DNA of 64,000 nucleotides from Ferrimonas lipolytica (GTDB lineage Bacteria; Pseudomonadota; Gammaproteobacteria; Enterobacterales; Shewanellaceae), in contig NZ_CP051180.1 of NCBI RefSeq assembly GCF_012295575.1, positions 1,984,001 through 2,048,000 of the forward strand, written 5' to 3'. This document shows, piece by piece, positions 4,164-49,155 of the stretch. The notes under the pieces were generated by a model. The model ran no database searches. It was given only the letters and a program-made list of their open reading frames with translations, and was not told the origin of the DNA. Position 1 is the stretch's first letter; every line of letters starts with the position of its first letter. Both the position numbers and the translations under genes were made by a program.

Positions 4164-4324
4164 GGCTGTGTACCAACTAAGTGTTGTTCTTTCCAAAGCA
4201 GTTAAAGCACTGGCTTGGTGAGTCGCGATACAAAGGATAACGCACTATAGCTATTGATCTTCTGCCGCATCGGAGCAGTCCAGTGAAGCGTTTTGGACTG
4301 CGAACTAAGGCAAAGGGGGGGATT
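4164..4324 (+). mobile_element. MITE copy 1 (3'-truncated)
   Basis: This is the left half of the dispersed element found throughout the window. It starts with GGCTGTGTACCAAC and contains the internal dyad AGTCCA...TGGACT. Similarity to the other copies stops at about 4324, shortly after the G-run, and no right terminal repeat or second target duplication is seen. It lies between the convergent dehydrogenase and TetR genes. Confidence 0.8.
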
Positions 4325-4611
4325 ACAATGGCAGTCGGGTTAGGGCTGAAGACGCATACTCTTGAGCTGTTAACAGGAAGAAGGCCTAGTTGCTGCTAAC
4401 AACTGCGGGGTCACTCGGTGAATAGCATATTATCAGGATAAATAAGCGGTCCAGTGAAGTATTTGTCAGCGTAGGCACTACGCTAAGCTGCAGCGGCGCG
4501 CTCATGGCTAAGTTAGCAACGAAGCACTAACATCAATACTGAGCCGACCCCAATTGACTGTTAGCCAAAGTAATAACCACAAGTTTATCGATATATTACG
4601 TCTTAAATACC
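4325..4611. other. Gene-free stretch after truncated MITE
   Basis: No open frame with coding character and no convincing RNA gene is seen here. There is a small dyad (GCGTAGGCACTACGC). The sequence replaces the right half expected of the MITE, so a deletion or later rearrangement joined unrelated DNA at this point. Confidence 0.4.
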
Positions 4612-5298
4612 TTAGATTTTGCCACTACAGTAATCGAGTAAAACCTGTTGTACCTTTGCCAAGTCAACACCGTGGTCATTTACCCAATCAAGGCTCTGCA
4701 ATAAAAACTGCTGTTGCTGCAAATAGGCCTGCAGCACCTTGTACTGTTCCGGTTGTGCCATACCAACGTTATCTAACATGGTCATCTTACCGCGCTGCAA
4801 CGCCATCATATCAACCGAAACCAGCGATAGCTGCTTAGGGCTAGCCGCTAATTTCCCAGCTCGAACTGCGCGCTTGAGGCTCATCTCAGCAGCGCGAAAC
4901 AACCACATAAGATCCCCAGCCCAGTGATCTACTGTTGCTGGATTAGCATCTAACCACATCGCCTGATTCACTGGAAGAAAGCGCAAGCCGTGATCGGCAG
5001 GTGAACGCATCTGCATCAGGATCGGAAAACCGTGTAATGCTAACAGTTGTTCCTGAGTGCTGAGAGCGGGATGGTGCAGTAATATCTTAGCCGCCTGTAT
5101 ATTGCTCTGTAGGGTTCGGCTTTGCACCGCAATCATCAGTTCCGATTTATTGGGGAAATGCTTATAGATGGTCGATTTTGAGCAGCCCAAGGTGCTTGCC
5201 AAGGCCGATAGCGAGAAATCGATGATGCCATATTGTCGCAACTGTTGAACCGCTGCCTGGAGGATCTCGGGTCGTTGAATGGCCATGGCTGCAAACAC
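4612..5298 (-). CDS. TetR family regulator
   Basis: This is a 228-residue TetR-type repressor. The N-terminal helix-turn-helix is clear, with LGCSKSTIYKHFPNKSELM at about residues 38-56, followed by an all-helical ligand-binding domain. The start drawn is GTG; an in-frame ATG 12 bp inside (5286) is equally possible, and neither has a strong Shine-Dalgarno sequence. It lies downstream of, and on the same strand as, the arylsulfotransferase gene, with a terminator between. Its helix-turn-helix resembles that of the second TetR gene on the other side of that enzyme. Target and ligand are unknown. Confidence 0.88.
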   Translation of the reverse strand: MFAAMAIQRPEILQAAVQQLRQYGIIDFSLSALASTLGCSKSTIYKHFPNKSELMIAVQSRTLQSNIQAAKILLHHPALSTQEQLLALHGFPILMQMRSPADHGLRFLPVNQAMWLDANPATVDHWAGDLMWLFRAAEMSLKRAVRAGKLAASPKQLSLVSVDMMALQRGKMTMLDNVGMAQPEQYKVLQAYLQQQQFLLQSLDWVNDHGVDLAKVQQVLLDYCSGKI

Positions 5299-5502
5299 TA
5301 TAGAAAAACATCAGTATGCGAACCTGCCTTACACGACTCAACCATCTTCACTGAACGTTGGAGATTTGTGGTTGGCCGGTCACGTCGATTACTCAATTAC
5401 CCGAATCTTTTTGGCGCTAAAGTTGCGACGCTGAGACGAGCCAGCAAGACACACGGCTCACTGCTGGTTTTGCCCCGCGCCAAATAGATATAATAAACGA
5501 AA

Positions 5503-5527
5503 AAGCGGCAGCCTATGGCTGCCGCTT
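5503..5527 (-). terminator. Terminator of arylsulfotransferase gene
   Basis: This is a perfect 11-bp stem (AAGCGGCAGCC) with a 3-nt loop. On the minus strand it is followed by a run of T. It begins about 30 bp after the assT stop. Confidence 0.85.
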
Positions 5528-5555
5528 AGTGTCTTAACTAATGATGGTTAGCTAA

Positions 5556-7313
5556 TTAGAACGCCTTGTCTGGATCAATAACCAGTGCACGGTAGGCTGC
5601 CATGCTTGGCGATACGTGCCACATCTTCATCTCAACCTTCACGTCCTTGTCCTGACCCGCTGATACTTCAGTAATCCATGGCGTGGATACCTCTGGGCGG
5701 TTGAACAAGCCAGCAGAACCGGAGAACATCACCATGGTTTCCGTATCGGCATGGTACTTAATGCTTGAAGTTACTGCACTGTACCATTCGTAACCGCGTT
5801 CTTTACCATATTCCCAAACCTGTTCAACGGTCATGTCTTTTTCGTTGATCTTGTACTCAACACCACGAGAGTACTTCATGCTTGGCATGGCTGGCTGGTC
5901 CAAACCACGGCCGTCACCATTATCAAACACCGTTAGGGTGCCACGGCCACTCAACCACGCAGTATGTTGAGTCCAAGACCAGTCAAAGTCAGTATCTTCA
6001 CAAACCCCTGCCTCACAGTTGAGCTTGCGACCTTTAGAATCGACTGGGGTAAGTACCTTGTCCTCGAAACCGTTACGCCAACCTTCTGGTGCCGACAGGA
6101 TCCACTTCACTTCTTTATCGCGGCCAATCTTAACGGTGCCCTGGTGACGCAATGACAAAATGATGGAGTCGTCTGATGCGTCATAAGCGATGGAGTTGAC
6201 GTGGGCCCAGTTACGGCCAGTACCGATACCAATTTCGTCACCAAATGGTGCATCCGGCTCAAGCTCAACCTTCTGCCCCATCTTATCCATATCGATGTTC
6301 AGACATACCGCTGAAGAATCAAGCACGGTGATCAACGAGGACCGAGTTGGATCCAGAATCATGTTCAGATCCCACTCTTCAACCAGCTTGCCATATTCAT
6401 CGACTTCAATAATGTGGTCACGTACGGTATTAACCAACTTGCCATCAGGACGAACGTAGTTCTTTTTGGCTACTCGGATCATGTAAGTGTCGCGCTCGGT
6501 GCGGATGATCTCGTGGGATTGGTCGATGTAACCACGTGGCAGGCGACGCTCAAATACCTTACGACCGAGCAGATCATAACGCATGTAAGACTGACCTTTA
6601 GCGATGATCATATCGCCGTTTTCCATCTGGTGCCAGCCCATCAACACGCCACGGTGGGCCAGTTTTTCGTCGCCGTTGAACATCAGTGAGTTCAGGTACC
6701 AGCGTACTTCACCTTGGGTATCGGTGACGAAGTTGTAGGATGGGAATGAGTTCCAGTTAGCTGCACCGCCCAAGGCCCAGGTCATCGATTTGGACTCGGT
6801 ACCTCGGTGGCTGGCGTTAACGAGGTAAAGGCGGTCCTCAAACCCCTTCTTAACAGTCTTCACTTCCATCTCAGGGTAAGGGCGCTGCATACCATCCAGT
6901 GCCTTGGTAAAGATCGGCTGGGTCTGGACTTTGTAGGTCTCGCTTACCTGCTTACCGGACTCTTCCAGGGTATAGGTCACATCAACGACGTTCATATGGT
7001 TTGCGTACAGACCAAATACCGGAATACCGTTGTGGGTTAGAATGTTCTTGCGCTCAACATCGTAGGAGATAGCGCGGCCATCTTTGCCTTTACCTCGTAC
7101 CGTTACCTTGGCGTCCAACAAACGCTTACCACCAAGATCGATAACCGCCGCCAGTGGAGCGATATCGTAAGGGTTAATAACCACATTACCCAGCTGCCCC
7201 TGAGTTGGTGGCCCACCGGTGGATGCGAACTTACCGGCATAGGCGTTAAAGGCTGGCGCGGCAATCAAGCTACCAACCAGCAGGGCTAAAGTGGTGACAT
7301 TACGTGTTTTCAT
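5556..7313 (-). CDS. Periplasmic arylsulfate sulfotransferase (AssT family)
   Basis: AssT enzymes move a sulfate group from one phenolic ester to another phenol in the periplasm without PAPS. The 585-residue protein begins with a signal peptide (Met-Lys-Thr-Arg, hydrophobic core, cleavage near AYA). The known active-site set of the E. coli enzyme (His252, His356, Asn358, Arg374, His436) is matched here by His267, His371, Asn373, Arg389 and His450, with an almost constant offset; His450 would carry the sulfate. Cys433 and Cys438 correspond to the disulfide next to the active site. The dsbL/dsbI oxidase pair that accompanies assT in uropathogenic E. coli is not present nearby. A TetR gene lies on each side. 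The family call is strong; the natural donor and acceptor are unknown. Confidence 0.93.
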   Translation of the reverse strand: MKTRNVTTLALLVGSLIAAPAFNAYAGKFASTGGPPTQGQLGNVVINPYDIAPLAAVIDLGGKRLLDAKVTVRGKGKDGRAISYDVERKNILTHNGIPVFGLYANHMNVVDVTYTLEESGKQVSETYKVQTQPIFTKALDGMQRPYPEMEVKTVKKGFEDRLYLVNASHRGTESKSMTWALGGAANWNSFPSYNFVTDTQGEVRWYLNSLMFNGDEKLAHRGVLMGWHQMENGDMIIAKGQSYMRYDLLGRKVFERRLPRGYIDQSHEIIRTERDTYMIRVAKKNYVRPDGKLVNTVRDHIIEVDEYGKLVEEWDLNMILDPTRSSLITVLDSSAVCLNIDMDKMGQKVELEPDAPFGDEIGIGTGRNWAHVNSIAYDASDDSIILSLRHQGTVKIGRDKEVKWILSAPEGWRNGFEDKVLTPVDSKGRKLNCEAGVCEDTDFDWSWTQHTAWLSGRGTLTVFDNGDGRGLDQPAMPSMKYSRGVEYKINEKDMTVEQVWEYGKERGYEWYSAVTSSIKYHADTETMVMFSGSAGLFNRPEVSTPWITEVSAGQDKDVKVEMKMWHVSPSMAAYRALVIDPDKAF

Positions 7314-7459
7314 AATTGTTTCAATCCATGGTTAACGGTTCGAAACCACTATAAAAAATGGTGAGCTAAGCGAGTGCGATACAGCCTCAAAATCACTGAA
7401 CAGCTTGTACCGCTATTGTTAGTTAATAAGTACCAACGGTTTCCCTAACTGCGAGAGGA

Positions 7460-8146
7460 TTAGCGAATGGCACTCGATTCCAGTTCACTGGCCAGCCAAA
7501 CCTGCAAGCCATCACCATCAACTTGGGTCAGTTCAGGCCACATCAATTGCCGTGCTATTGCGGCAAAGCGGTCGATATAATGCCGGTTAGGTAAACAGTT
7601 GTAGATGGCACCGTAAACAAAATTGCAGTTGGCTGCGATGTAGCCTCGCTCCAATGCAAACATCGCATCCAGTACAGCCTTCACTTGTTCGGTTTGAGCC
7701 GCCACTGATGGTTCCTGTTCGATGATAAGCGATGGGATCCGTCGTACTCGCTCTATGTTGGTCACTAAGCCTTGCTTACTATCCTTGCTTGCCCGACGCC
7801 ACAATACCGAGTTGGTGGCCAGAAAGGCTAGACCGTGAGCATAAGGATGTTCGGTGCGGTACACCACGTTGCTGGTAGAAAACAGCACTAACCGCTCCAA
7901 GGCGTTAAAGCACTCGGCATCGAGGATCTTCTGCGACATGTTTAACCGCCACAATAACTCACGGTTAAACACCGCTAGCATCAGCTCATCTTTATTAGCA
8001 TAGTGACGATAAATAGTGGCCTTAGAGCAGCCTACCTCGGCAGCTACGGTACCTAGCGACATATCGACAATCCCCTGTTTTGCCAGTTGTCGTTCAGCCA
8101 CATCGAGAATGGTTTCAGCGCTGTTCATTACATACTCATCATTCAT
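7460..8146 (-). CDS. TetR family regulator
   Basis: This is a TetR-type regulator of about 228 residues from the chosen start. The helix-turn-helix VGCSKATIYRHYANKDELM is near the N-terminus. The frame extends upstream to 8233, but that extension is hydrophobic and unlike a TetR N-terminus, so ATG 8146 (MNDEYV) is preferred; ATG 8128 is another option. It is divergent from the metallo-beta-lactamase-fold gene, with a perfect 12-bp palindrome in the shared intergenic region, and lies 146 bp upstream of assT on the same strand. It may control either neighbour. Start confidence is moderate; family call is firm. Confidence 0.85.
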   Translation of the reverse strand: MNDEYVMNSAETILDVAERQLAKQGIVDMSLGTVAAEVGCSKATIYRHYANKDELMLAVFNRELLWRLNMSQKILDAECFNALERLVLFSTSNVVYRTEHPYAHGLAFLATNSVLWRRASKDSKQGLVTNIERVRRIPSLIIEQEPSVAAQTEQVKAVLDAMFALERGYIAANCNFVYGAIYNCLPNRHYIDRFAAIARQLMWPELTQVDGDGLQVWLASELESSAIR

Positions 8147-8319
8147 ATCAGAGCGCTTAGGGTAGCTTATTGAGCTAATCACAACGTTGGTCCACAGCAC
8201 ACTACAAGCAACACTGAAAACCGCACAACTCAATACTAGTAAAACTCGGTTGATTAGTGCTTAGGTTAGCTCATTTCGCTTCGGCGATTGAATTGCAGTC
8301 ACTTGTGGCCGTGCGTATA

Positions 8320-8336
8320 TTAAACGTTCGTTTGAA
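8320..8336. promoter_or_regulatory. Candidate TetR operator
   Basis: TTAAACGTTCGTTTGAA contains the perfect 12-bp palindrome AAACGTTCGTTT (8322-8333). It lies between the divergent TetR and MBL-fold genes, 34 bp before the latter's start. Palindromes of this kind are typical TetR-family sites. The assignment is by position only. Confidence 0.5.
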
Positions 8337-8369
8337 AATAGTATTCGCTTTAATAGACTAGGAGCATGG

Positions 8370-9182
8370 ATGCCAGTTCGAGGACGTTATCAACATCAAG
8401 GGGTTGAAGGAGTGCGAGTCGGCCGCTTTAATCGAGGCATCAATACCACCTTCATCTGCTACCGAATCGAAGACACGCTGTTTGATAGCGGTCCAGCTAA
8501 TCAATGGCCCGAGGTTGAGTCATTTGTCGCTGAGAAACCTGTACGGCAGTTGCTCATAACTCATCATCACGAAGATCACAGCGCCAATGCCGCGGCAATT
8601 GCAGCCAAATTCAACATCACCCCCTACGCACCAACTCAAGCACTTGATAAACTTCGTTATGGCTATAAAACTCCGCTGATCCAGCAACTGTTTTGGGGCA
8701 AACCGAACCCAGTTAAAACCCAACCCTTTAACAATAGGATGCAATTGTACGATGGCAGCCCAATTGTGCCGGTGCATACCCCAGGTCATGCCCGAGATCT
8801 CACCTGTTTTTATCTGCCACAACAGGGGTACCTATTCAGTGGTGATCTTTACCTCGCCAAATCGATTCGTTACCTGCGCATCGATGAAGATCTAAATCAG
8901 TTAATGGCCAGTATGCGCCTAGCATTAACATTAGACTTCGATACCCTACTGTGTCCCCATCGCGGCCCAGTCAAGGGTGGTAAAACGGCACTCGCTGCCA
9001 AACTGAATAATATGCGAGAACTTTGTGGTCGCGCGCAGCAGCTATCTCAACAAGGGTTACCGCTCAAGCAGGTAGTAAAGCGCTTGCTCGGCTCAGAGGA
9101 TCTTACCGCCTACCTATCACGCCATAATTTTTGTAAAACCAACCTAATTCGAGCTGCCATTGACGTAGAAAACTTGGATTAG
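8370..9182 (+). CDS. Metallo-beta-lactamase-fold hydrolase
   Basis: This 270-residue MBL-fold protein carries the zinc motif HxHxDH as His65, His67, Asp69 and His70, then HTPGH, SGDLYL and a late CPHRGP histidine, so both metal sites look complete. No signal peptide is seen, so it is probably cytosolic. The C-terminal 70 residues form a helical segment typical of the glyoxalase II-like/LACTB2 group. TAGGAG lies 6 bp before the ATG; a nearby ATG at 8366 is out of frame. The gene is divergent from a TetR regulator that may control it. The substrate cannot be told from the sequence. Confidence 0.88.
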   Translation: MPVRGRYQHQGVEGVRVGRFNRGINTTFICYRIEDTLFDSGPANQWPEVESFVAEKPVRQLLITHHHEDHSANAAAIAAKFNITPYAPTQALDKLRYGYKTPLIQQLFWGKPNPVKTQPFNNRMQLYDGSPIVPVHTPGHARDLTCFYLPQQGYLFSGDLYLAKSIRYLRIDEDLNQLMASMRLALTLDFDTLLCPHRGPVKGGKTALAAKLNNMRELCGRAQQLSQQGLPLKQVVKRLLGSEDLTAYLSRHNFCKTNLIRAAIDVENLD

Positions 9183-9251
9183 TTGGCGACTGAATAGTCG
9201 TTATGTCAGCATAAAAGCCAGCGTTCATGCTGGTTGCCAATTGGCCGTTGG

Positions 9252-9265
9252 TTGATTTAGATCAA
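9252..9265 (+). promoter_or_regulatory. Perfect FNR/EtrA-type site
   Basis: TTGATTTAGATCAA matches the FNR consensus TTGATNNNNATCAA exactly. If it sits at -41.5, transcription would start near 9300, and TATTGT at 9288-9293 falls exactly where the -10 element should be. It would drive the gene at 9365 as a class II activated promoter under oxygen limitation. Confidence 0.7.
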
Positions 9266-9364
9266 GTCGAAGTGAGGGTAACTTTTCTATTGTTAAATGG
9301 TGATATTTTCACCTAAGCAGTATGGCTGCTAACGGCCTTACTGCCTATAGGTAAGGAGGCCAGC

Positions 9365-9778
9365 GTGAGACTACGAAACCGCTACCGGATGCCATTAACC
9401 GCTATTGCCATGGGCATTTTAGTGATGTTGATGCTCTACCCGCTCAATATGATGTTCGCCAACGCACAGCCTATGCGCCCAGCCGAAAAGTACGATAATT
9501 ATCAAGGCAAAATGACCTACTGCAGCACCTTTAATCACTACGTTGAAAAGGATCAGCACAGCACTACAGTCAAGTTGATGGAGTACGCCAACGACAACGC
9601 CATGAGTTATCTTATCTGGCGCTTTGGTAAGGATCAGGGCAAGCGGATGGTGGATGTGTGCGAGCACGCACAACAGCGCTATATCGTCGAGCAGTGCCAG
9701 CAGCAACCTGATGAAAACCTTGAACAGTTGATATTGAACTACAACCGCCAAGCGGTAAAACAGAGCGGGGCGATATAA
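9365..9778 (+). CDS. Small exported or membrane-anchored protein of unknown function
   Basis: This is a 137-residue protein with a GTG start preceded by a near-ideal Shine-Dalgarno sequence (TAAGGAGG). Residues 8-30 form one hydrophobic segment that may be a signal peptide or an anchor. The rest is hydrophilic, with three cysteines (CSTF, VCEHA, EQCQQ) and many Gln and Tyr. No family was recognised. A perfect FNR-type site and a matching -10 hexamer lie about 100 bp upstream, which suggests expression under low oxygen. It ends just before a hairpin shared with sstT. Confidence 0.75.
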   Translation: MRLRNRYRMPLTAIAMGILVMLMLYPLNMMFANAQPMRPAEKYDNYQGKMTYCSTFNHYVEKDQHSTTVKLMEYANDNAMSYLIWRFGKDQGKRMVDVCEHAQQRYIVEQCQQQPDENLEQLILNYNRQAVKQSGAI

Positions 9779-9806
9779 AAAAGCCCGCTGTTATAGCGGG
9801 CTTTCT
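9779..9806. terminator. Bidirectional terminator
   Basis: The stem AAGCCCGCT/AGCGGGCTT with a 5-nt loop lies between the convergent small exported gene and sstT. The T-run is strongest on the minus strand, so it mainly serves sstT. Confidence 0.8.
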
Positions 9807-9834
9807 CTGCAAACTCGTTAACGAGGTTAACGGT

Positions 9835-11669: not shown

Positions 11670-11674
11670 CCGAG

Positions 11675-14562: not shown

Positions 14563-15570
14563 ATGTCCACTAACACCATCACCGTTATTCCTGGCGACGG
14601 CATCGGCCCAGACATCGTTGAAGCAACCGTTAAGGTACTCGACGCTGCCGGCTGTAATTTTAACTACGATTATGCTGACGCTGGCCTTGCTGCTCTAGCA
14701 AACCACGGTGAATTGATGCCGGAAAGTACGCTCGAGCTAATCGCGAAGAACCCAGCAACACTTAAGGGTCCATTAACCACACCAATCGGTACTGGTTTCA
14801 CCTCCATCAACGTGAGTCTGCGTAAGCAGTTCAACCTGTACGCTAACGTCCGTCCGGTGTTGTCTCTGAAAGGCACCCAGGCGCGTTTTGACAACGTTGA
14901 TATCATTACCGTACGCGAAAACACTGAAGGGATGTACTCCGGTGCAGGCCAAGTGATCAGCGAAGATGGCCTGATTGCCGAAGCAAAAAGTATCATCACC
15001 CGAGAAGGCGCAGAGCGGATCTGTACCTTTGCCTATGAGTTGGCTCGTAAAGAGGGACGTAAGAAGGTTACCGCAGTTCATAAAGCCAATATCATGAAGA
15101 CCACTTCAGGTTTGTTCTTGCAGGTTGCTCGTGAAGTGGCACAGCGCTACCCAGACATTCAATCAGAAGAGATGATCGTCGATGCGACCTGCATGAAACT
15201 GGTTATGGATCCTAGCCAGTTCGACGTTATCGTAACCACCAACCTATTCGGCGATATTCTGTCGGATCTGTGTGCGGGTTTGGTTGGCGGTTTGGGTATG
15301 GCACCAGGTGCTAACATCGGCGAACAAAGCGCCATCTTCGAAGCTGTACACGGCAGTGCGCCAGATATCGCTGGTCAAGATTTAGCTAACCCGACTGCGC
15401 TTATTCTCGGTGCGATCCAGATGCTGGAATACCTTGGTATGTCCGAGCAAGCAGCTAAGATCCGCACCGCGGTACAAGACACCATCGCCTCTGGTGAAAA
15501 CGTCACTAAAGACCTGGGTGGCAACGCCGGTACCAAGGCCTTTACTGATGCGATCATCTCCCGCTTATAA
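14563..15570 (+). CDS. Isocitrate dehydrogenase, NAD-dependent type
   Basis: This 335-residue enzyme of the isocitrate/isopropylmalate dehydrogenase family converts isocitrate to 2-oxoglutarate in the TCA cycle. The isocitrate loop [18 protein letters not shown] is present, as are ENTEGMYSG and [14 protein letters not shown]. The coenzyme-pocket segment reads HGSAPDIAG (residues 263-271). Asp268-Ile269 in place of the Lys-Tyr of NADP enzymes indicates NAD. The short homodimer type, rather than the 416-residue NADP Icd, is known from Shewanella. GGAAGGAAG lies before the ATG. It is followed by a terminator into which a MITE has inserted. Confidence 0.92.
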
Positions 15571-15600
15571 GCGTTGGTTTATAAACGTAGATAACACCAA

Positions 15601-15623
15601 GCCTCGCTGATGCGGGGCTTTTT
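15601..15623 (+). terminator. Isocitrate dehydrogenase terminator, interrupted by MITE copy 2
   Basis: The stem GCCTCGC/GCGGGGC (one wobble pair) with a TGAT loop is followed by TTTTTCTT. That T-tract is exactly the 8-bp target duplicated by the adjacent MITE. Confidence 0.8.
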
Positions 15624-15626
15624 CTT

Positions 15627-15912
15627 GGCTGTGTACCAAACTCAGCGTTGTTCTTTCCAATGCTGTTAAAGCACTGGCTAGTGCGAGTTTTGATACAAGG
15701 GGAATGCATTACGCCGCCGTTTATCTTCTGCCGAATTGGAGCAGTCCATTTAGTCTGCGACCTAAGGCAACGGGGATTCCAAAGGGGGCGAAGCCCCCCC
15801 CTAATGCATACAAGAATGTGTCGTCGCCACCGCGACATAACCCCTTTAGAGTACTGCAATCGGTAAAGCCGAAGGCCTGATATAAACCTCAACACTTAAC
15901 TGTGACACAGCC
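15627..15912 (+). mobile_element. MITE copy 2 (complete)
   Basis: This is a 286-bp element with imperfect terminal inverted repeats (GGCTGTGTACC... and ...GTGACACAGCC). It is flanked by a perfect 8-bp duplication TTTTTCTT (15619-15626 and 15913-15920). The central hairpin is partly deleted compared with other copies. It contains no transposase. Confidence 0.92.
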
Positions 15913-16072
15913 TTTTTCTTGCCTTTGTCGCGATAGCCTCATTCAATTTAGTCAACGAGCTAGCTGCTTAACGCTAGGACAGGTAGTCAAAACCCGCTTC
16001 CACAATATGACTATGGTCGTCTGGGTAACAGCAAGCCAGTGATATACCCTAAACACTCTAACAGGAGTTGTT

Positions 16073-17796: not shown

Positions 17797-18087
17797 GGCG
17801 CTGTACCAATTAAGTGCTGCTCTTTCCAAGGCTGTTAAAGCACTGGCTAGGCGAGTCGCGATACAAGGGTAAAGCACTACCGCTATTGCTCTTTTGCCAC
17901 ATTGGAGCAGTTCAGCGAAGCGTTTTGGACTGCGACCTAAGGCAAGGGGGATTCCAAACGGGGCGAAGCTCGCCCCTAATGCATACAAGAATGTGCCGTC
18001 GCCAGCGCGATATAGTCCCCTAAAAACACCGAAATCGGCGAAGCGGAAGGCTTGATATAAACCTCACCACTTAACTACGACACAGTC
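17797..18087 (+). mobile_element. MITE copy 3 (complete)
   Basis: This element of about 291 bp has slightly decayed ends (GGCGCTGTACC... and ...CGACACAGTC). The flanking repeat is AAAAAAAAT on both sides (17788-17796 and 18088-18096), consistent with an 8-9 bp target duplication in an A-tract. It lies between the DUF3012 lipoprotein gene and rlmM. Confidence 0.88.
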
Positions 18088-27316: not shown

Positions 27317-27572
27317 GGCTGTGTACCAATTAAGTGTTGTTCTTTCTAATACAGTTAAATCACTAACGCTATTGATCTTCTGCCGCATTGGAGCAGTTCA
27401 GCGAAGCGTTTTGGACTGCGACCTAAGGCAAGGGGGATTCCTAAGTGGGCGGAGCTCCACCAACTGCATACAAGAATGTGTCGTCACCACCGCGACATCC
27501 CCCCTTAAGAGTACTGCAATCGGTACAGCCGAGGGCTTAAGATAAACTTCAACAGCTAACTACGACACAGCC
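27317..27572 (+). mobile_element. MITE copy 4 (complete, internally shortened)
   Basis: This is a 256-bp element with GGCTGTGTACC and GACACAGCC ends and a perfect 8-bp duplication TAAAATTA (27309-27316 and 27573-27580). It lacks a stretch in the left third that the other copies have, where the text jumps from the TTAAATCACTA segment to CGCTATTGATC. Confidence 0.92.
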
Positions 27573-30518: not shown

Positions 30519-31613
30519 TTGGAACTTCTACACATCGATTGTCTTGGCCAACCCCTTCGTCTTGAAGGTTCTCTTGCCGGATGGCAACAACTGTTTTGGA
30601 ACAATAAGTTGGTATCTGTTATCGATGCCTCTGACAGTAAAGCCAACAACACCCACCAGTTTGAACTCACCGCAATAAATGAGGCTCAGCAGAGCAAAGC
30701 GATTGCAGTATCATTGGCAACCGAACTGCAATGGCAACCGTTCAACCTCAAATATCAACTACTGGTCGACAGCGAATTAGTCACCAGCGGCGAACGCAAC
30801 AGCAAAGATATTGAACAGCAAACTCCGGTGCAAGCTGTGGTTGAAAAGCCTAAGTTCAGCATCATCGGGCTCGGCTCGTTGGCGTTGAAATTAATGAAGA
30901 GCGCTAAAGTGATAAAGGTCGTTTTAGCCGGAGCCAGTGTCGCCGCTTACTCTTGGCTATTCTCATGGCAGTTTGCCCTGATGCTAATTGGCTGTCTGGT
31001 GTTTCACGAATATGGCCATATTAAAGCGATGAAATATTTTGGCCTAAAAACCAAAGGGATCTATCTCATTCCCTTTGTCGGCGGCCTCGCTTTGGGCGAC
31101 AGCAAAATTAACACCCGCTGGCAGGATGTGGTTATCTCGATAATGGGACCAACCTTTGGCCTGTTTTTATCGATCTTGTCGCTTATTACTTATTGGGTCA
31201 CCGACGAGCCCATCTTTGCTGGATTAGCGGCATTCAATGCCCTCCTCAACTTATTCAATCTGCTTCCTATCTTGCCGCTTGATGGCGGCCATGTGCTCAA
31301 AAGCATCGCTTTTTCGATGAACAGCAAATTTGGTTTGGTTGCCTGTATTCTGGGTGCGGCTGCTGGCGTTTACCTGAGCTATATGTTTGGGTTAGCGTTG
31401 CTCGGCTTCCTATTATTGATTGGTAGTCTAGAGATCGTGTTTGAATGGCGTGGCCGTCATCAAAGCCATTTACTGCCGCTCGATCGTTATGGCCAAACAT
31501 TCTCAACGGTATGGTATCTGATGGTCGTTGCTGGCTTAATCAGCATTATTATGTCTATCGCTGCCGGCGGTGACAGCATGCTCAACCTGCCGCTGCAGAT
31601 CTTACAAAGCTGA
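30519..31613 (+). CDS. Membrane site-2-type metalloprotease (M50 family)
   Basis: This 364-residue protein is an intramembrane zinc protease of the M50 family. The zinc motif HEYGH is at residues 163-167 within a hydrophobic helix, and the third ligand motif NLLPILPLDGG lies near residues 246-256. The first 120 residues are soluble, and six or so hydrophobic segments follow. The start is TTG, the first possible codon after an in-frame stop, without a good ribosome site, so the start is uncertain. The gene stands alone and its substrate is unknown. A decayed MITE-like stretch lies just upstream. Confidence 0.85.
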   Translation: MELLHIDCLGQPLRLEGSLAGWQQLFWNNKLVSVIDASDSKANNTHQFELTAINEAQQSKAIAVSLATELQWQPFNLKYQLLVDSELVTSGERNSKDIEQQTPVQAVVEKPKFSIIGLGSLALKLMKSAKVIKVVLAGASVAAYSWLFSWQFALMLIGCLVFHEYGHIKAMKYFGLKTKGIYLIPFVGGLALGDSKINTRWQDVVISIMGPTFGLFLSILSLITYWVTDEPIFAGLAAFNALLNLFNLLPILPLDGGHVLKSIAFSMNSKFGLVACILGAAAGVYLSYMFGLALLGFLLLIGSLEIVFEWRGRHQSHLLPLDRYGQTFSTVWYLMVVAGLISIIMSIAAGGDSMLNLPLQILQS

Positions 31614-31690: not shown

Positions 31691-31983
31691 GGCTGTGTAC
31701 CAATTAAGTGTTGTTTTTTCTAAGGCTGTTAAAGCACTGGCTCGGCGAGTCGCGATACCAAGAGTAAAGCACTACCGCTATTGATCTTCTGCCGCATTGG
31801 AGCAGTACAGCGAAGCGTTTTGGACTGCGACCTAAGGCAAGGGGGATTCCAAAGGGGGCGAAGCTCCCCCTAATACATACAAGAATGTGCCGTCGCCACC
31901 GCGACATTGTCCCCCCTAAAAGCACCGAAATCGGTGAAGCCAAAGGCTTAAGATACACTTCAACAGCTAACTACGACACAGCC
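31691..31983 (+). mobile_element. MITE copy 5 (complete)
   Basis: This is a 293-bp element with GGCTGTGTACCAATTAAG and GACACAGCC ends. The flanks are CAAAAAG (left) and CAAAAAAG (right), a target duplication with one A slipped. The right flank is the T-tract (on the minus strand) of the SEC-C gene terminator. Confidence 0.9.
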
Positions 31984-31987
31984 CAAA

Positions 31988-32016
31988 AAAGCCAGTCAAC
32001 TAAGCTGACTGGCTTT
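31988..32016 (-). terminator. Terminator of SEC-C protein gene
   Basis: The stem AAAGCCAGTCA/TGACTGGCTTT with a 7-nt loop is followed on the minus strand by TTTTTTGGG. MITE copy 5 sits directly against its T-tract. Confidence 0.82.
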
Positions 32017-41067: not shown

Positions 41068-41091
41068 AAACCCAAGGTGCGCCTTGGGTTT
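41068..41091 (+). terminator. Terminator of the metal-uptake operon
   Basis: A perfect 10-bp stem AAACCCAAGG/CCTTGGGTTT with a TGCG loop is followed by TGTTTTATTT. Confidence 0.9.
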
Positions 41092-42920: not shown

Positions 42921-43058
42921 GGCTGCGTACCAATTAAGTGTTGCTCTTTCTAATACAGTACAAGCAGCGGCTAGGCGAGCGCCGATACAAGGGATTAAGC
43001 ACTACCACCGTTGACCTTCTGCCGCATTGGAGCAGTCCAGCGAAGCGCTTTGGACTGC
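42921..43058 (+). mobile_element. MITE copy 6 (3'-truncated)
   Basis: The left half of the element starts at GGCTGCGTACCAATTAAG and ends directly after the central hairpin arm TTTGGACTGC, where the other copies continue GACCTAAGG. No right end or target duplication is found. Confidence 0.85.
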
Positions 43059-43152
43059 AGCAACAACTAGCTGGGCTAACGAAAACTTGCGAAAAAGGCA
43101 CCTATTAGTAACTGCATAAACGCCGTTTTCGTTGCTGTCGTCCAATACCGTT
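43059..43152. other. Short spacer with long-range dyad
   Basis: AACGAAAAC and GTTTTCGTT are about 30 bp apart downstream of the dehydrogenase stop. They may form a weak termination hairpin. Confidence 0.3.
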
Positions 43153-44214: not shown

Positions 44215-44732
44215 TATTTGGTTACCTGTAAAAGTTGGGTAGCGGTTTGCTGAGCACTGAGCACTGCAGTATTACCCAACACTGGCCAGGCGCTCGACAC
44301 ACCTTCATGTAATAAAAATAACGCGGTGGCGAGGTCAGCACGGCCGCTTTGCTCGGCAAACAGTTCTCGAACCTGTTGCTTATGTTGATGTACCGCGTCG
44401 GTTATCTGCAGATTTTCAGGAAAGGCAGCAATAGCACTTATCGATAGGCAACCATGAGGCGCAAATTCCTCCATCCACCGTTCCAAACGTTCAAACATGT
44501 GCACCACCGAATCCACTGGGCTTGTTGGCACATTCAGCAATAGATAATCAAGATAGCGTTGATGTCGATGTGCCAGCGCACCAACGATCATCGCTTCCTT
44601 GGACGGGTAGTATTTATAGAGCGTGCGTAGACTTACGCCACTAGCATCTTTTAGCTGGGCCACACTTGGCTCAGCAAACCCCTGTAGGCTGAACGCCAAT
44701 TCGAGTCGCGCAGTAATCTGTTGCTTTAACAT
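44214..44732 (-). CDS. TetR family repressor
   Basis: This is a 172-residue TetR regulator. The helix-turn-helix LKDASGVSLRTLYKYYPSKEAMI is at about residues 27-49, followed by a short helical ligand domain. AAGGTG lies before the ATG. Two tandem perfect-arm palindromes lie 11-55 bp upstream of the start codon, so the gene almost surely represses itself and the coupled dehydrogenase downstream. The arrangement resembles NemR-type sensors of reactive electrophiles, but the operator sequence differs and the ligand is unknown. Confidence 0.9.
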   Translation of the reverse strand: MLKQQITARLELAFSLQGFAEPSVAQLKDASGVSLRTLYKYYPSKEAMIVGALAHRHQRYLDYLLLNVPTSPVDSVVHMFERLERWMEEFAPHGCLSISAIAAFPENLQITDAVHQHKQQVRELFAEQSGRADLATALFLLHEGVSSAWPVLGNTAVLSAQQTATQLLQVTK

Positions 44733-44742
44733 TTTGCACCTT

Positions 44743-44764
44743 GGTAGAGTGTTTGCTCTACCAA
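44743..44764. promoter_or_regulatory. TetR operator 1
   Basis: TGGTAGAG-TGTTTG-CTCTACCA is a 22-bp palindrome with perfect 8-bp arms, 10 bp from the TetR start codon. It pairs with a near-identical copy 23 bp away. Confidence 0.8.
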
Positions 44765-44765
44765 T

Positions 44766-44787
44766 GGTAGAGTGTTCGCTCTACCAT
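44766..44787. promoter_or_regulatory. TetR operator 2
   Basis: TGGTAGAG-TGTTCG-CTCTACCA is the second copy, differing from the first by one base in the spacer. Centre-to-centre distance is 23 bp, close to two helical turns, so two repressor dimers could bind on one face. Confidence 0.8.
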
Positions 44788-44861
44788 TGTCAAACAGCAG
44801 CATCCGTTTGTACGTAAGGGCACCGTATCAATTGTTTATATGACTTTGATCAATCCCGTGT

Positions 44862-44877
44862 TTATCAAGATTGATAA
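44862..44877. promoter_or_regulatory. Inverted repeat TTATCA-N4-TGATAA
   Basis: This is a 6-bp-arm dyad upstream of the DUF4124 gene. A TTGATCAA palindrome lies about 15 bp before it. The binding protein is unknown. Confidence 0.35.
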
Positions 44878-44974
44878 CATTGGTGATTAGTCGCTACGGC
44901 TTATTCTGGAGCGAATAGTGTCGGACAATTCACAACACCTTGAAGCTTCGTTGAGAAGCATTTCCTATTCACGG

Positions 44975-45478
44975 ATGAATATGAACAAGCTTGCAGTCAC
45001 ACTTCTACTGGTGATGCCTATGTCACTTAATGCAGGAGTTTATAAATGGGTCGATGCTAGCGGCGGCATCCATTACAGTGAACGACCACCTGTAAACGTC
45101 GCAACACAGACCGTTGCCGTTAATAACCCAAGAGAACAATCGGTTGGTAACCGTGACGACAATTTCGACTCGTCACCGTTGTCCCAAGTGATACGCCAGT
45201 TAAACAGCAACCAACAGCAGTTAAATTGCTCCGTTGCCGTTCGCCACGCTAATGCCGGCATCAATTACCTCGTACGAATGGCTGATATCAACTACCGCGA
45301 TGGTTTTACTGAGCTTAGTAAATATCAAACTGAATCCCGCTATTTATCTAATTTAAAGCGCAGTTTTACCATTCGCAATTGTGTTACTGCGAGTGGCAAG
45401 CACTTAGCGTTTTATGCCTGCGCAGCCGACTCAGCCAAACATTTTGCATTTTGTATATCTCAGCTAAGTGATATTTAG
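44975..45478 (+). CDS. DUF4124 exported protein
   Basis: This is a 167-residue protein from ATG 44975. The signal sequence MNMNKLAVTLLLVMPMSLNA leads into VYKWVDASGGIHYSERPP, the hallmark of DUF4124, a small beta domain at the N-terminus of many exported proteobacterial proteins of unknown role. The remainder has four cysteines (LNCS, RNCV, YACA, AFCIS) that may form two disulfides. A GTG at 44918 has a better ribosome site (GGAG), but would place about 20 polar residues before the signal sequence. It is followed 85 bp later by MITE copy 7. Confidence 0.78.
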   Translation: MNMNKLAVTLLLVMPMSLNAGVYKWVDASGGIHYSERPPVNVATQTVAVNNPREQSVGNRDDNFDSSPLSQVIRQLNSNQQQLNCSVAVRHANAGINYLVRMADINYRDGFTELSKYQTESRYLSNLKRSFTIRNCVTASGKHLAFYACAADSAKHFAFCISQLSDI

Positions 45479-45562
45479 CGTTTATCTTCCCAACGCCTAA
45501 GTCGGCGACAACAAACAGGCTCTGCAGCAGGTGAAATTAGTTGCTCCTGTCGCTCAATTTTA

Positions 45563-45853
45563 GGCTGTGTACCAATTAAGTGTTGTTCTTTCTAATACAG
45601 TAAAAGCAGCGGCTAGGCGAGCGCCGATACAAGGGAATAAGCAGTACCGCCGTTGACCTTCTGCCGCATTGGAGCAGTCCAGCGAAGCATTTTGGACTGT
45701 GGCCAAAGGCAAAGGGGATTCCAAACGGGGCGAAGCTCCCCCCTAATGCATACAAGAATGTGCCGCCACCACCGCGACATAACCCTTAAGAGTACAGCAA
45801 TCAGTAGAGCCGAAGGCTTGATATAAACCTCAACAGCTAACTCCGACACAGCC
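45563..45853 (+). mobile_element. MITE copy 7 (complete)
   Basis: This is a 291-bp element with GGCTGTGTACCAATTAAG and CCGACACAGCC ends and a perfect 8-bp duplication CAATTTTA (45555-45562 and 45854-45861). Confidence 0.93.
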
Positions 45854-46040
45854 CAATTTTACTCCTCCTTAAAGCGGTGCTGTGAGTTACGAGTTAGGGC
45901 CAACACTAACGTTCTAGCTAACAGCGGGATAACCATCCACTTCATCGCTGTGAGGTTAAGATCACATGTCCAGAACATGCTTTTTAACTAAAGCTTTCAT
46001 TACGTTAGTATAATTAAAAATAATAAAATTAATAACTTAC

Positions 46041-46508
46041 ATGTTTAGCAAGCTTACCCAATGGATTTATGCAAAAAATAAGGATCCAGCTTTAGCACCA
46101 CAACCCAGTCTAAATGCTACCGATAATGATCCGTTTGCGATCGACTCAAGTTATCGAGTAAAACCTTTAGCCACTGCTGTCAACAGCGCCACCGTTAAAG
46201 CGGAACTCGCCCAATACCTAGATGATCCTTTTACTGAAGACAGCGCTGCGTTTTGCTCAGTCACAAATTTCGCGACAGAAATAAACCCCGCCAATGGCTT
46301 GCCGATGATGGGCTGTATCGATATCGAAGGTAATCCATACGGTTGCACGAGCAACATTAGCGACCCGTTTGCAACGGAGATCAGCGTTATGGATAGCAAT
46401 ATCGATTCCTGCCTTAGTTCAAGTTGGGATTCTAGCTCTAGCTTTGATGACGACACCTTCGGCAGCTGTAGCATCAGCGACAGTGCATTTAGCGACGACA
46501 ACTGGTAA
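46041..46508 (+). CDS. Acidic, serine-rich protein with DPF repeats, unknown function
   Basis: This is a 155-residue protein without signal peptide. Three short repeats NDPFAID, DDPFTED and SDPFATE are spaced through it. A NPANGLPMMGCIDIEGNPYGC segment carries two of its five cysteines, and the C-terminus is low-complexity Ser/Asp (SSSWDSSSSFDDDTF). I do not recognise a named family. It is bracketed by MITE copies 7 and 8, with AT-rich DNA before it and no strong ribosome site, so expression is uncertain. Confidence 0.65.
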   Translation: MFSKLTQWIYAKNKDPALAPQPSLNATDNDPFAIDSSYRVKPLATAVNSATVKAELAQYLDDPFTEDSAAFCSVTNFATEINPANGLPMMGCIDIEGNPYGCTSNISDPFATEISVMDSNIDSCLSSSWDSSSSFDDDTFGSCSISDSAFSDDNW

Positions 46509-46525
46509 CCGCTGCCCTTTTATTT

Positions 46526-46800
46526 GGCTGTGTACCAACTAAGTGTTGTTCTTTCCAATGCTGTTAAAGCGCCGGAGAGGCGAATATTGATACAACGGGA
46601 AAGCACTACCGCCGTTGACCTTCTGCCGCATTGGAGCAGTTCAGCGAAGCATTTTGGACTGGACCCAAAGCAAGGGGGATTCCTAACGGGACGAAGCCCC
46701 CTTTGGGTGCCGGCGCCACCGCGACATAACCCGAAAGAGTGCTGCCATCGGTAGAGCCGAAGGCTTGATATAAACTTCAACACTTAACTGTGACACAGCC
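46526..46800 (+). mobile_element. MITE copy 8 (complete)
   Basis: This is a 275-bp element with intact GGCTGTGTACC and GTGACACAGCC ends. The flanks TTTTATTT (46518-46525) and TTTGATTT (46801-46808) are an 8-bp duplication with one mismatch. A short deletion is present in the right third. Confidence 0.9.
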
Positions 46801-46856
46801 TTTGATTTACCCCAAAAGAGAAACCGGCGAATTAATACGCCTGTAACAAGGACAAC

Positions 46857-48716
46857 ATGAGTAGTATCGAAACAACGGTGAAGCAATCAAAACGGATTGA
46901 ATCACTGCTAACCAAACACTTTAACGCCGAAGGCCGTGGGCTGCATGAGAAGGTAAGCAGCTGCGAAGCACAGCTGCCAAACTTGTTAGTTCGACAGATA
47001 CGTTGGATAGCCACGCTTCGCAACAAAGCGGTTCACGAAGATGAATTTGAGCTAAAGAATAGCGCTGAATTTGAACGCCGCTGCGACCATGTTGTCAGTC
47101 AACTGCAACTACTGATTGCGCCTAAAGCCTCAGCACTCAACACTCGGGCTGCAACAATGGCGGAACTAAACTCTGCCAACGGTAACCCTGCTTCTGAAAA
47201 AAGCAAAATGCGCATCAGTATGGCTATTCTGCTCATCATCGTTACTACTTTGTCTTATCTCTACTACGCCTACGCCGAAAATCAACAACAGCAGCGATTT
47301 GAGCGACAACAGCAACGACTGCAACTAGCGAATGCCGCCAAACAAGCTAAAGCGCAAGCGGCAAAACAAACCAACCAGGCCCAAGCAGAAGTCGAACCCG
47401 ACGAGTCTCAGCCACAACCGAGCAACACCCAATCAGTATCGGTAAGCTTGCAACCGGGCTCACTGGCGCAGAAGGCTCAACAGGCTAAGTCCGACTTACA
47501 GCAGGCAAAAGATGACATCCGTACTAATCTGCTTGAGCAGATCCTCACTGATATCAACCTCAGTACCGATAAAGTGATGGTCAGTGCCAATGCCGATGGC
47601 ACTGTTAACCTGTTACTCCCAGTCGATTGGACTATTCCTACTACAACCTTGCTGCCAGTCATAAACCGCTACCTCCACGACTATAAAGGTCGCCAAATTA
47701 AGCAGCAGCGTTTGGACACCGCCCTAGCTGATCGCGACAACCCAGCAGGAATCACCATTAGCCGGATATGGAATAGCCAAGACAATCAAAAACTGCCCTA
47801 CTCCCATGACCTCTATCAATGGCTCACAGCACACCAAGTAAAACTGGTTGCTAACTTCGGTGATCGCAGCGCTGAACTGATCCTTGCTTCAGGTAGAGAT
47901 TGCCATGTTAGTTGTCGCGGCGTAGGTAATGATGAGTTTCAGATCATGACCACCACCCCAAAACCGCGAACACCGATGATGTTCAGTAAACAGCGCAATC
48001 CAATGGTGGTAGCCTCACTGCCGATGGCAGCGTTAACGGCCGAGCATCAGCTCACGCTGAAGTTAGTTGTCACTCATAAAGATAATGTGGTTTCATCAAA
48101 ATCAATCTCGCTGAACGAGCCGCTACAACCACAACAACTATTAGATAGGATCGAAACTGCCCACACAGACTATCAACACGCCCAACAACGGATCGAACAA
48201 ATCAAGCAAATCATACTTGAACAAACCGAGTTGGTTGTTGGCGAGGTGCAAGTCAAAGCGAATAAAGATGGCAGCTCCAATCTGATCATTCCAATTAACT
48301 GGAAGATGCCCCATTCGCTACTATTAGCTGAGGTAAACCGCTACTTTCATCAATACCGTGCCGAACCTTTTAACTACCAAAGCATCGACTTTGACAGATA
48401 CCCCGATGTTAACGGCCACGGTCTCCGCATATCTCGCATGTGGAATCGCGACGAACTGGAAAAACAGCCAAATTCTGAAAAACTGTTAGCCAAATTGATG
48501 GCCGACGATATCGTTATTCGCGCACGTATCGGTGATAGCAAAGGGCAACTAGGCATTGCCACCGCCATGGACTGCCATGTTAGCTGTCGCTTAGGCGGCG
48601 ATGATGAATACCACATTCGCTTTAGCGGCAAGCAAGAGTCCATCGTTATCAGCAACGTATCAGATGCACAATTAGCGCAAGCCAGCGAGTTAAAACTGAC
48701 TCTCGAACGCAACTAA
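46857..48716 (+). CDS. HEPN-like membrane protein with duplicated C-terminal domain
   Basis: This 619-residue protein has four parts. Residues 1-90 are a helical domain with RNKAVH at residues 55-60, which fits the RxxxxH motif of HEPN/DUF4145 domains, some of which are RNases. Residues about 121-142 are a single transmembrane helix. A Gln/Ala-rich coiled coil follows. Two tandem copies of one domain fill the rest. Each begins with a 'LxxxIL...' helix and contains NLLLPVDW or NLIIPINW, then ISRIWN or ISRMWN, then RDCHVSCRGVGNDEF or MDCHVSCRLGGDDEY. The repeated domain is unknown to me and would lie outside the membrane. AAGGA precedes the ATG. It is bracketed by MITE copies 8 and 9. Confidence 0.78.
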   Translation: MSSIETTVKQSKRIESLLTKHFNAEGRGLHEKVSSCEAQLPNLLVRQIRWIATLRNKAVHEDEFELKNSAEFERRCDHVVSQLQLLIAPKASALNTRAATMAELNSANGNPASEKSKMRISMAILLIIVTTLSYLYYAYAENQQQQRFERQQQRLQLANAAKQAKAQAAKQTNQAQAEVEPDESQPQPSNTQSVSVSLQPGSLAQKAQQAKSDLQQAKDDIRTNLLEQILTDINLSTDKVMVSANADGTVNLLLPVDWTIPTTTLLPVINRYLHDYKGRQIKQQRLDTALADRDNPAGITISRIWNSQDNQKLPYSHDLYQWLTAHQVKLVANFGDRSAELILASGRDCHVSCRGVGNDEFQIMTTTPKPRTPMMFSKQRNPMVVASLPMAALTAEHQLTLKLVVTHKDNVVSSKSISLNEPLQPQQLLDRIETAHTDYQHAQQRIEQIKQIILEQTELVVGEVQVKANKDGSSNLIIPINWKMPHSLLLAEVNRYFHQYRAEPFNYQSIDFDRYPDVNGHGLRISRMWNRDELEKQPNSEKLLAKLMADDIVIRARIGDSKGQLGIATAMDCHVSCRLGGDDEYHIRFSGKQESIVISNVSDAQLAQASELKLTLERN

Positions 48717-48761
48717 TTGACCTAGCCTCAAGGTATATCGACAGCTATTTCAAAAAGCAAA

Positions 48762-48792
48762 AAGGCCACCCTAGCAGTGCTAGGGTGGCCTT
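48762..48792 (+). terminator. Strong terminator
   Basis: A perfect stem of about 14 bp AAGGCCACCCTAGC/GCTAGGGTGGCCTT lies 45 bp after the HEPN-like gene. The tail is only TTGGG, but the stem is long. Confidence 0.75.
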
Positions 48793-48861
48793 GGGCTTCT
48801 TATCTAGGCAACAGGCCCCACGCCTTATAACGAACGTCGTCATTACAAGCTGTTATTTAGT

Positions 48862-49154
48862 GGCTGTGTACCAACTAAGTGTTGTTCTTTCTAATACAGT
48901 TAAAGCACTGACTAGGCGAGTGTTGATACAAAGATAAAGCACTACCGCCGTTGACCTTCTGCCGCATTGGAGCAGTCCAGCGAAGCGTTTTTGGATTGCG
49001 ACCTAAGGCAAAGGGGGGATTTCAAAGGGGGCGAAACTGCCCCCTTATGCATACAAGAATGTGCCGTCACCACCGCGACTTAGTCCCCTAAATGCACCCA
49101 AATCGGTGAAGCCGAAGGCTTGATATAAACCTCAACACTTAACTGTGATACAGC

Positions 49155-49155
<1 letters not shown>
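48862..49155 (+). mobile_element. MITE copy 9 (complete), inserted in the kdsA stop codon
   Basis: This is a 294-bp element with GGCTGTGTACC and GTGATACAGCC ends. Flanks TATTTAGT (48854-48861) and TATTTAAT (49156-49163) differ by one base. The last base of the element is the G of the kdsA stop codon TAG on the minus strand. Confidence 0.92.

What the first reader, a model, noticed from the sequence alone, without database searches (positions are those of the whole stretch)
4164..49155. Undescribed-looking MITE family: nine clear copies of a 255-295 bp element in 64 kb
Nine stretches share the same ends (GGCTGTGTACCAA... and ...GACACAGCC), which are imperfect inverted repeats of each other over about 23 bp, and the same interior. 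Seven are complete (15627, 17797, 27317, 31691, 45563, 46526, 48862) and each is flanked by an AT-rich repeat of about 8 bp: TTTTTCTT, AAAAAAAT, TAAAATTA, CAAAAAG, CAATTTTA, TTTTATTT/TTTGATTT, TATTTAGT/TATTTAAT. None encodes a transposase. About one copy per 7 kb is very dense. The 8-bp duplication and GG-starting ends fit mobilisation by an IS256- or IS1595-type transposase.
Basis: partly seen in the sequence, partly recalled or inferred. Interest (0 to 1): 0.78.

Follow-up and report, generated by a model that had tools for sequence, protein, structure and literature searches.

The report
Mini-transposons that land at gene terminators
A marine bacterium (genus Ferrimonas) carries hundreds of short, gene-less copies of an IS1595-type jumping gene, and both these copies and the related full-length jumping genes are often found in the T-run of transcription terminators, where they should do little harm.

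Summary
In detail: seven full and two truncated copies of a 255-295 bp repeat in the window, plus one 96-nt remnant. The family is large: 73 loci, 45 full-length copies, in an 864-kb sample of a 4.13-Mb genome. The elements are MITEs: in 35 of 45 the flanking octamers match at 6 or more of 8 positions (null 7.3%), and one tested terminator is unoccupied in 13 of 13 congeners. The unexpected part is the target. 27 of 60 MITE sites are terminator-like (controls 6.6%, and 15.2% with composition matched). In the IS1595 clade that holds the partner, 17 of 20 assessable insertions are at terminators, against 0 of 20 in other branches. Survival of harmless insertions surely contributes: 1 of 59 rejoined sites lies in an ORF, control 53%. 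Ten searches of an open-access library showed no report of terminator targeting by a DDE insertion sequence; ISfinder was not available.

The parts
15627..15912 (+). full-length MITE copy, 286 bp; 8-bp duplication TTTTTCTT at 15619-15626 and 15913-15920
15598..15626 (+). predicted intrinsic terminator of the upstream gene (14563-15570, +) whose T-run is the insertion site; the corresponding terminator is unoccupied in 13 of 13 congeners
17797..18087 (+). full-length MITE copy, 291 bp; duplication AAAAAAAT / AAAAAAAA (7 of 8); no strong hairpin at the site
27317..27572 (+). MITE copy with both ends, 256 bp (internally shorter); duplication TAAAATTA (8 of 8)
31691..31983 (+). full-length MITE copy, 293 bp; duplication ACAAAAAG / CAAAAAAG (6 of 8)
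31984..32014 (-). predicted intrinsic terminator read from the right (hairpin AGCCAGTC..GACTGGCT, then A-run = T-run on the minus strand) into whose T-run the copy at 31691 is inserted
   Evidence: MFE -17.2
45563..45853 (+). full-length MITE copy, 291 bp; duplication CAATTTTA (8 of 8)
46526..46800 (+). full-length MITE copy, 275 bp; duplication TTTTATTT / TTTGATTT (7 of 8)
48862..49155 (+). full-length MITE copy, 294 bp; duplication TATTTAGT / TATTTAAT (7 of 8)
4164..4329 (+). truncated MITE copy, left part only (profile 1-162)
42921..43059 (+). truncated MITE copy, left part only (profile 1-138)
   Evidence: inverted pair I1

Best explanation
The repeats are MITEs: non-coding elements moved in trans by an IS1595-family DDE transposase that binds the shared ends (about 23 bp, GGCTGTGT...) and cuts the target with an 8-bp stagger, so that 8 bp are duplicated (anatomy shown; catalysis inferred from the family). 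The transposase belongs to a clade of IS1595 that prefers an A/T octamer with G/C on either side and, most of all, the T-run at the foot of the hairpin of an intrinsic transcription terminator. Because the duplicated octamer is the T-run itself, the host gene keeps hairpin plus T-run after insertion, and the element sits just behind a terminator that should still work (sequence shown, function inferred). Such near-harmless insertion, together with loss of harmful ones, would let one family reach roughly 300 copies in a compact genome (inferred). The autonomous partner is broken in this strain, so the family is probably no longer moving here.
For: MITE: 35 of 45 full-length copies in the sample have flanking octamers matching at >=6 of 8 (null 7.3%), 20 of 45 perfect (null 0.2%); terminator unoccupied in 13 of 13 congeners at the one site tested. 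Partner: four contig-end copies in F. futtsuensis (perhaps two insertions) match the MITE right end (37 bp, 87%) and their transposase hits NF033547 IS1595 with 185 bits; the own genome keeps a 1029-bp copy with 9 stops between ends of the same kind and an internally deleted copy. Target: 27 of 60 MITE sites with a duplication are terminator-like, against 6.6% of 3000 A/T-matched non-coding octamers and 3.9% of 3000 coding ones; reverse polarity 2 of 60. Composition-matched control 15.2%, odds ratio 4.6, p 6e-8. At octamers with >=5 T and G/C at -3 and -2, hairpin in 23 of 35 against 556 of 2461; with >=6 T, 21 of 26 against 293 of 702 (p 1.5e-4). IS level: 17 of 20 loci in one clade of 16 proteins (support 99/97) against 0 of 20 outside it.
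Against: 33 of 60 MITE sites are not terminator-like, and the broken 1029-bp IS copy in the own genome is not at a terminator. Survivor bias is real: rejoined, 1 of 59 sites is spanned by an ORF against 53% of A/T octamers at large, and this holds for non-terminator sites too (0 of 33). Part of the enrichment is composition (6.6% rises to 15.2%). My score looks for the hairpin next to the octamer, so the tight register is partly built in; in a free fold the last paired base lies from -1 to +5 relative to the octamer's edge in 21 of 27, elsewhere in 6. Terminator copies have fewer perfect duplications (11 of 27) than the others (21 of 33). Gene context is only mildly biased (17 convergent of 68 placed loci, 0.17 expected by count). 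No background was computed for the genomes of the IS copies, and these are not independent (5 loci each from G169 and G011 inside the clade; 11 of the 20 outside are one element in G036). Terminators are predictions without transcript data. Nothing beyond the ends links MITE and IS.
Confidence: 0.8

Rival explanations
1. IS1595-derived MITEs without choice of terminators: the enzyme only likes A/T octamers between G/C bases, and terminators are over-represented because they have that make-up and because insertions there are not purged.
For: Both classes of site share G/C at -2 (100% and 91%) and an A/T core; matching composition raises the control from 6.6% to 15.2%; 33 of 60 sites are not terminators; 1 of 59 rejoined sites is in an ORF against 53% of A/T octamers, a sign of purging.
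Against: The main controls use non-coding sites, and the excess persists after matching composition (27 of 60 vs 15.2%) and among T-runs with G/C in front (23 of 35 vs 22.6%). IS copies of the clade are at terminators in 17 of 20 loci while IS1595 elements of other branches, mostly with A/T-rich octamers, are there in 0 of 20, though 11 of those 20 are one element in one genome.
Confidence: 0.25
2. The elements are mobilised by an IS256-type transposase.
For: 8-bp duplications and GG-starting ends are also found in IS256 (recalled).
Against: Elements found with such ends and duplication carry an IS1595-type transposase (NF033547 185 bits, PF12762 43 bits), also in the own genome. IS256 models were not run on the own genome.
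Confidence: 0.03
3. The repeats are kept for a function, as structured RNAs or as extra terminators, rather than as selfish DNA.
For: The interior has several palindromes; one copy folds better than most shuffles (z -2.6 and -2.2 on the two strands); two-sided changes occur at columns 52-98 (23 of 57 copies) and 269-282 (12 of 57).
Against: RNAalifold on 57 copies gives only -6.1 kcal/mol with a covariation term of -0.63; most changes in the palindromes are one-sided or break the pair, and the two-sided ones look like subfamily marks; no Rfam family in the window but a tRNA; 56 of 59 other genomes searched have no match.
Confidence: 0.05

Closest known systems
IS1595 family insertion sequences (NF033547; nearest annotated name ISAchd1, 57% identity)
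   Same: DDE transposase of IS1595 type, GG-starting ends, 8-bp mostly A/T-rich duplication, element of about 1.03 kb
   Different: The window elements have no transposase; the clade around the partner is found at terminators, the other IS1595 branches sampled are not. ISApl4, an IS1016-type member, is reported with A/T-rich 8-bp repeats, and the word terminator does not occur in that paper's main text (PMC12561309, passages only)
Group IIC (bacterial class C) introns
   Same: Insert downstream of Rho-independent terminators (PMC3522654, passages only)
   Different: Retroelements (recalled); here DNA elements with inverted ends and a target duplication inside the T-run
TnGBS / ISLre2 / ISKra4 elements (Mutator-like transposases) that insert upstream of sigma-A promoters
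   Same: DDE elements that use a transcription signal as target (PMC3942029, abstract and passages)
   Different: They insert near promoters, at a fixed distance in the TnGBS/ISLre2 case; this clade is found at the hairpin/T-run border of terminators and duplicates the T-run
High-copy bacterial MITEs (ERIC, Correia, RUP, Chunjie)
   Same: Short non-coding elements in many intergenic copies; the review gives 711 ERIC copies in Photorhabdus and >120 Correia copies (PMC10969869, passages only)
   Different: Other ends and duplication lengths (recalled); the word IS1595 does not occur in that review's main text

Membership tests
MITE | short, no transposase gene, many dispersed copies | tested here: met
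   246-308 bp in 70 full copies; 73 loci in 864 kb
MITE | terminal inverted repeats | tested here: met
   outer 8 positions pair in 48-56 of 57 copies; imperfect further in
MITE | target-site duplication | tested here: met
   35 of 45 match at >=6 of 8, null 7.3%; 60 of 70 allowing boundary shifts
MITE | empty sites | tested here: met
   one site tested: 13 of 13 congeners unoccupied. For a second gene no ortholog was found at the threshold
MITE | ends match an autonomous element | tested here: met
   37-bp end, 87%, in F. futtsuensis IS1595 copies; broken copy in own genome
MITE | movement by that transposase | not testable with these tools
   needs an experiment
IS1595 family (partner element) | IS1595-type transposase | tested here: met
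   NF033547 185.4 bits (cut-off 75), PF12762 42.9 bits (gathering 27)
IS1595 family (partner element) | 8-bp A/T-rich duplication | tested here: met
   8 of 8 in 4 F. futtsuensis contig-end copies and 5 G011 copies
IS1595 family (partner element) | named ISfinder subgroup | not tested
   ISfinder not available; nearest annotated name ISAchd1
IS256 family | IS256-type transposase between these ends | tested here: inconclusive
   the elements found with these ends are IS1595-type; IS256 models were not run on the own genome
Group IIC intron | ribozyme or reverse transcriptase; no target duplication (recalled) | tested here: not met
   8-bp duplications; no Rfam match in the window except a tRNA

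The most novel reading that the evidence does not exclude
A clade of IS1595 transposases recognises intrinsic transcription terminators as such (hairpin plus T-run, perhaps as a cruciform, an opened T-run or a paused polymerase), inserts at the foot of the hairpin and duplicates the T-run so that the terminator survives. This would be the first DDE insertion-sequence lineage targeted to terminators, and it would help explain a burst to about 300 MITE copies in one genome.
Probability: 0.5. Interest if true: 0.75.

Novelty: new variant of a known kind. Interest (0 to 1): 0.6.

Why it matters
How selfish DNA finds harmless places in gene-dense bacterial genomes is an old question. Promoter-upstream targeting (TnGBS/ISLre2) and terminator targeting by group IIC introns are known; a DDE element that uses the T-run of terminators and regenerates the terminator by its own duplication would be a further, simple solution that can be tested directly. 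If the transposase senses the hairpin, it could also serve to map terminators or to place cargo safely behind genes.

Tried and rejected
Convergent-gene preference: in the window 8 of 9 copies follow a + gene (by eye), but of 73 loci 17 are convergent, 43 co-directional, 8 divergent, 1 inside an ORF and 4 at a stretch edge, against 0.17/0.63/0.21 expected by count, so no strong bias. The gene calls there cannot see genes split by an element; the rejoining test was made for that (59 of 60 sites; one flank too short). Genome-wide strand bias: the listing looked one-sided, but it is cut off and the totals are 139 to 106; rejected. RNA function: weak consensus fold and mostly one-sided changes. 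Age difference between terminator and other sites: identity to consensus 0.871 against 0.882, p 0.98. Second empty site: no match to the protein 30519-31613 at E 1e-40 in 13 congeners. Class-wide search with the G169-type transposase at E 1e-70: 0 of 369 genomes, without a positive control, so the clade seems sparse.

Rows dropped in the IS target count: 110 loci given; 45 distinct insertions with ends found (17 terminator-like), 29 without a clear end pair, 36 repeats of an insertion already seen or without a tblastn hit. Of the 45, five were left out of the tree comparison: L069 and L076 (flank cut by the contig end), L174 (ends mis-called), L206 (very distant), L072 (broken frame); with L072 the clade count is 17 of 21. 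L135, terminator-like with 6 of 8 duplication, failed the stricter rule and is not counted. The tree program warned of long branches outside the clade and put the label at 4 changes. Thirteen of 70 full MITE copies were left out of alignment A2 by my choice (shorter or diverged ones), so the structure counts rest on 57 of 70.

Literature: ten keyword searches of the open-access library, of which I saw listings with the start of abstracts; passages were read in six papers. ISfinder and subscription papers, including the one that defined the IS1595 family (Siguier 2009, seen only as a citation), were not available.

Full report
WHAT IS THERE. The nine stretches are real and at the stated places. 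A profile made from the seven complete copies (291 positions) finds 88 hits, merged to 73 loci, in 864 kb of the genome: the window plus 40 stretches of 20 kb at about even spacing. 45 copies are full length. Outside the window there are 63 loci in 800 kb, which extrapolates to about 325 in the 4,133,133-base chromosome; masked element sequence with its duplications is 20,031 of 864,000 bases (2.3%). The 13-base left end alone occurs 245 times with up to one mismatch, control 5. Full copies are 246-308 bp; pairwise identity has a median of 85%, so most copies are not recent.

WHOSE GENOME. A scan of named genomes with the partner transposase placed six loci in Ferrimonas: F. futtsuensis, F. 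kyonanensis, F. sediminum.

MITE ANATOMY. The ends are inverted repeats; the outer 8 positions pair in 48-56 of 57 copies. Flanking octamers match at 6 or more of 8 positions in 35 of 45 full copies and perfectly in 20 of 45, against 7.3% and 0.2% when left and right flanks of different copies are paired. Allowing small boundary shifts, 60 of 70 copies have a duplication (45 from the sample plus 25 more from search loci). When the flanks are rejoined, 1 of 59 sites is spanned by an ORF of at least 120 residues, against 53% of 1500 A/T octamers taken at large. The copy at 15627 was tested for an empty site: its upstream gene has an ortholog in 13 of 13 congeners (82-93% identity), each followed by a predicted hairpin with T-run (-14.9 to -19.4 kcal/mol) and no MITE in the locus; in the window's genome the corresponding terminator is split by the element.

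THE PARTNER. In a search of 60 genomes (the own one and 59 relatives) the MITE matched in its own genome, weakly in G010, and by short end matches in G008 (4) and G012 (1). The G008 matches are the left end of a 1023-bp element with an unbroken 315-residue transposase: NF033547 (IS1595) 185.4 bits, PF12762 42.9 bits. All four lie at contig ends, so they may be two insertions. The genus search (14 genomes, 7 with a match) found these, 3 one-frame and 2 two-part copies in G011, broken or partial copies in G004, G007, G009 and G010, and in the window's genome two broken ones: 1029 bp with 9 stops, and one with the middle deleted. A family search of the own genome showed no further one. The 1029-bp copy still has ends GGCTGTGTTTGAGTTAACTGTTG and GGCTGTGTCTTAATTAGCTGTTG, like those of the MITE (for example GGCTGTGTACCAATTAAGTGTTG and GGCTGTGTCGTAGTTAGCTGTTG). 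Nothing beyond the ends links the MITE interior to the IS.

THE TARGET. Rejoining the flanks of the 60 copies with a duplication shows two classes. In 27, a hairpin of -8 kcal/mol or better lies next to the octamer on the side that makes it a T-run behind a hairpin, that is, an intrinsic terminator; the reverse polarity occurs in 2. Control octamers matched for A/T content give 6.6% (non-coding, 3000) and 3.9% (coding, 3000). Both classes share a wider pattern: G or C at -2 (100% and 91%), A/T in the octamer, G or C at +2 (74% and 70%). Matching that make-up raises the control to 15.2%; the excess remains (odds ratio 4.6, p 6e-8). Among octamers with at least 5 T and G/C at -3 and -2, the hairpin is present in 23 of 35 insertions against 556 of 2461 background sites (p 8e-8); with at least 6 T, 21 of 26 against 293 of 702 (p 1.5e-4; background sites overlap one another). 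The score asks for a hairpin next to the octamer, so the register is partly built in; in a free fold the last paired base lies between -1 and +5 of the octamer's edge in 21 of 27, often because A-T pairs extend the stem into the T-run. A strict scan finds 241 free terminator-like sites in the sample, and 15 of 38 sample copies pass the same rule, so sites are not exhausted. In the window 2 of 7 full copies (15627, 31691) are of the terminator class.

THE SAME IN THE INSERTION SEQUENCES. To ask whether this is a property of the transposase, I collected IS1595 elements from the genus, the order and plasmids, found ends and duplications by rule, and scored the sites as before. Ends were found for 45 distinct insertions, 17 of them at terminators. 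In a tree of 26 distinct transposases (40 loci), all 17 fall in one clade of 16 proteins (20 loci; support 99/97); the 20 loci outside it score 0. The exceptions inside are L172, L176 and L178, plus the broken L072, which was not in the tree. The rows are not independent: inside, 5 loci come from G169, 5 from G011 and 2 from G008; outside, 11 are one element in G036. Most branches outside also use A/T-rich octamers, so a taste for A/T alone does not lead to terminators.

HOW IT MOST LIKELY WORKS. Shown: ends, duplication, terminator preference, broken partner, an empty site. Inferred: the transposase acts in trans on the MITE ends; an 8-bp stagger over the T-run duplicates it, so the hairpin keeps a T-run and the element starts just behind a terminator that should still work. 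Open: whether the enzyme senses the hairpin (as cruciform), the easily opened T-run, or the paused polymerase, and how much survival adds to choice. Survival very probably matters, since the non-terminator copies too are outside genes (0 of 33). The lower share for MITEs (45%) than for IS copies (85%) is not explained; age by identity does not differ between the classes, and perfect duplications are fewer in the terminator class (11 of 27 against 21 of 33).

WHAT IS KNOWN. Group IIC introns insert downstream of Rho-independent terminators (PMC3522654, passages). TnGBS, ISLre2 and some ISKra4-group elements insert upstream of promoters (PMC3942029, abstract and passages). ISApl4, an IS1595-family element, is described with A/T-rich 8-bp repeats and no mention of terminators (PMC12561309, passages). 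A large survey reports IS1595 over-represented between co-directional genes (PMC9208149, passages). Ten searches brought no report of terminator targeting by an insertion sequence or of this MITE in what I saw; this covers open-access papers only.

VERDICT. New variant of a known kind; interest 0.6.

Noticed in passing
L220-L230 (genome G036, 11 copies of another IS1595 element, 37% identical transposase): These copies sit in a partly palindromic target: CTG[TG] just left of the 8-bp duplication in 9 of 11 and [AC]CAG just right in 11 of 11 (read by eye). A different target rule in another IS1595 branch.
   Followed up: no
L109:15118-15676 (G000:C1:2085118-2085676): Two MITEs in tandem separated by one 8-bp duplication, at one terminator T-run: looks like a second insertion into the duplicated octamer of the first.
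   Followed up: partly
G000:C1:909428-910293 and L099:8212-8754: Head-to-tail arrays of three MITE units, about 300 bp and about 160 bp apart, suggesting tandem amplification or repeated insertion.
   Followed up: no
window 49155-49157: The ORF 49155-50006 (minus strand) ends in a stop codon made from the last base of the MITE at 48862 and two bases of the duplication; in the rejoined empty site the codon would be TAA instead of TAG, so the insertion kept a stop (by eye).
   Followed up: no
L040, L044, L050, L055, L059, L067 (genome G010): The congener G010 has its own diverged MITE-like repeats sharing parts of the interior and ends with this family; the L055 copy lies directly behind a hairpin and T-run (by eye).
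   Followed up: partly
G000:C1:3351122-3351479: IS1595 copy with the middle of the transposase deleted (residues about 1-76 joined to about 243-314), a natural halfway stage between IS and MITE.
   Followed up: no
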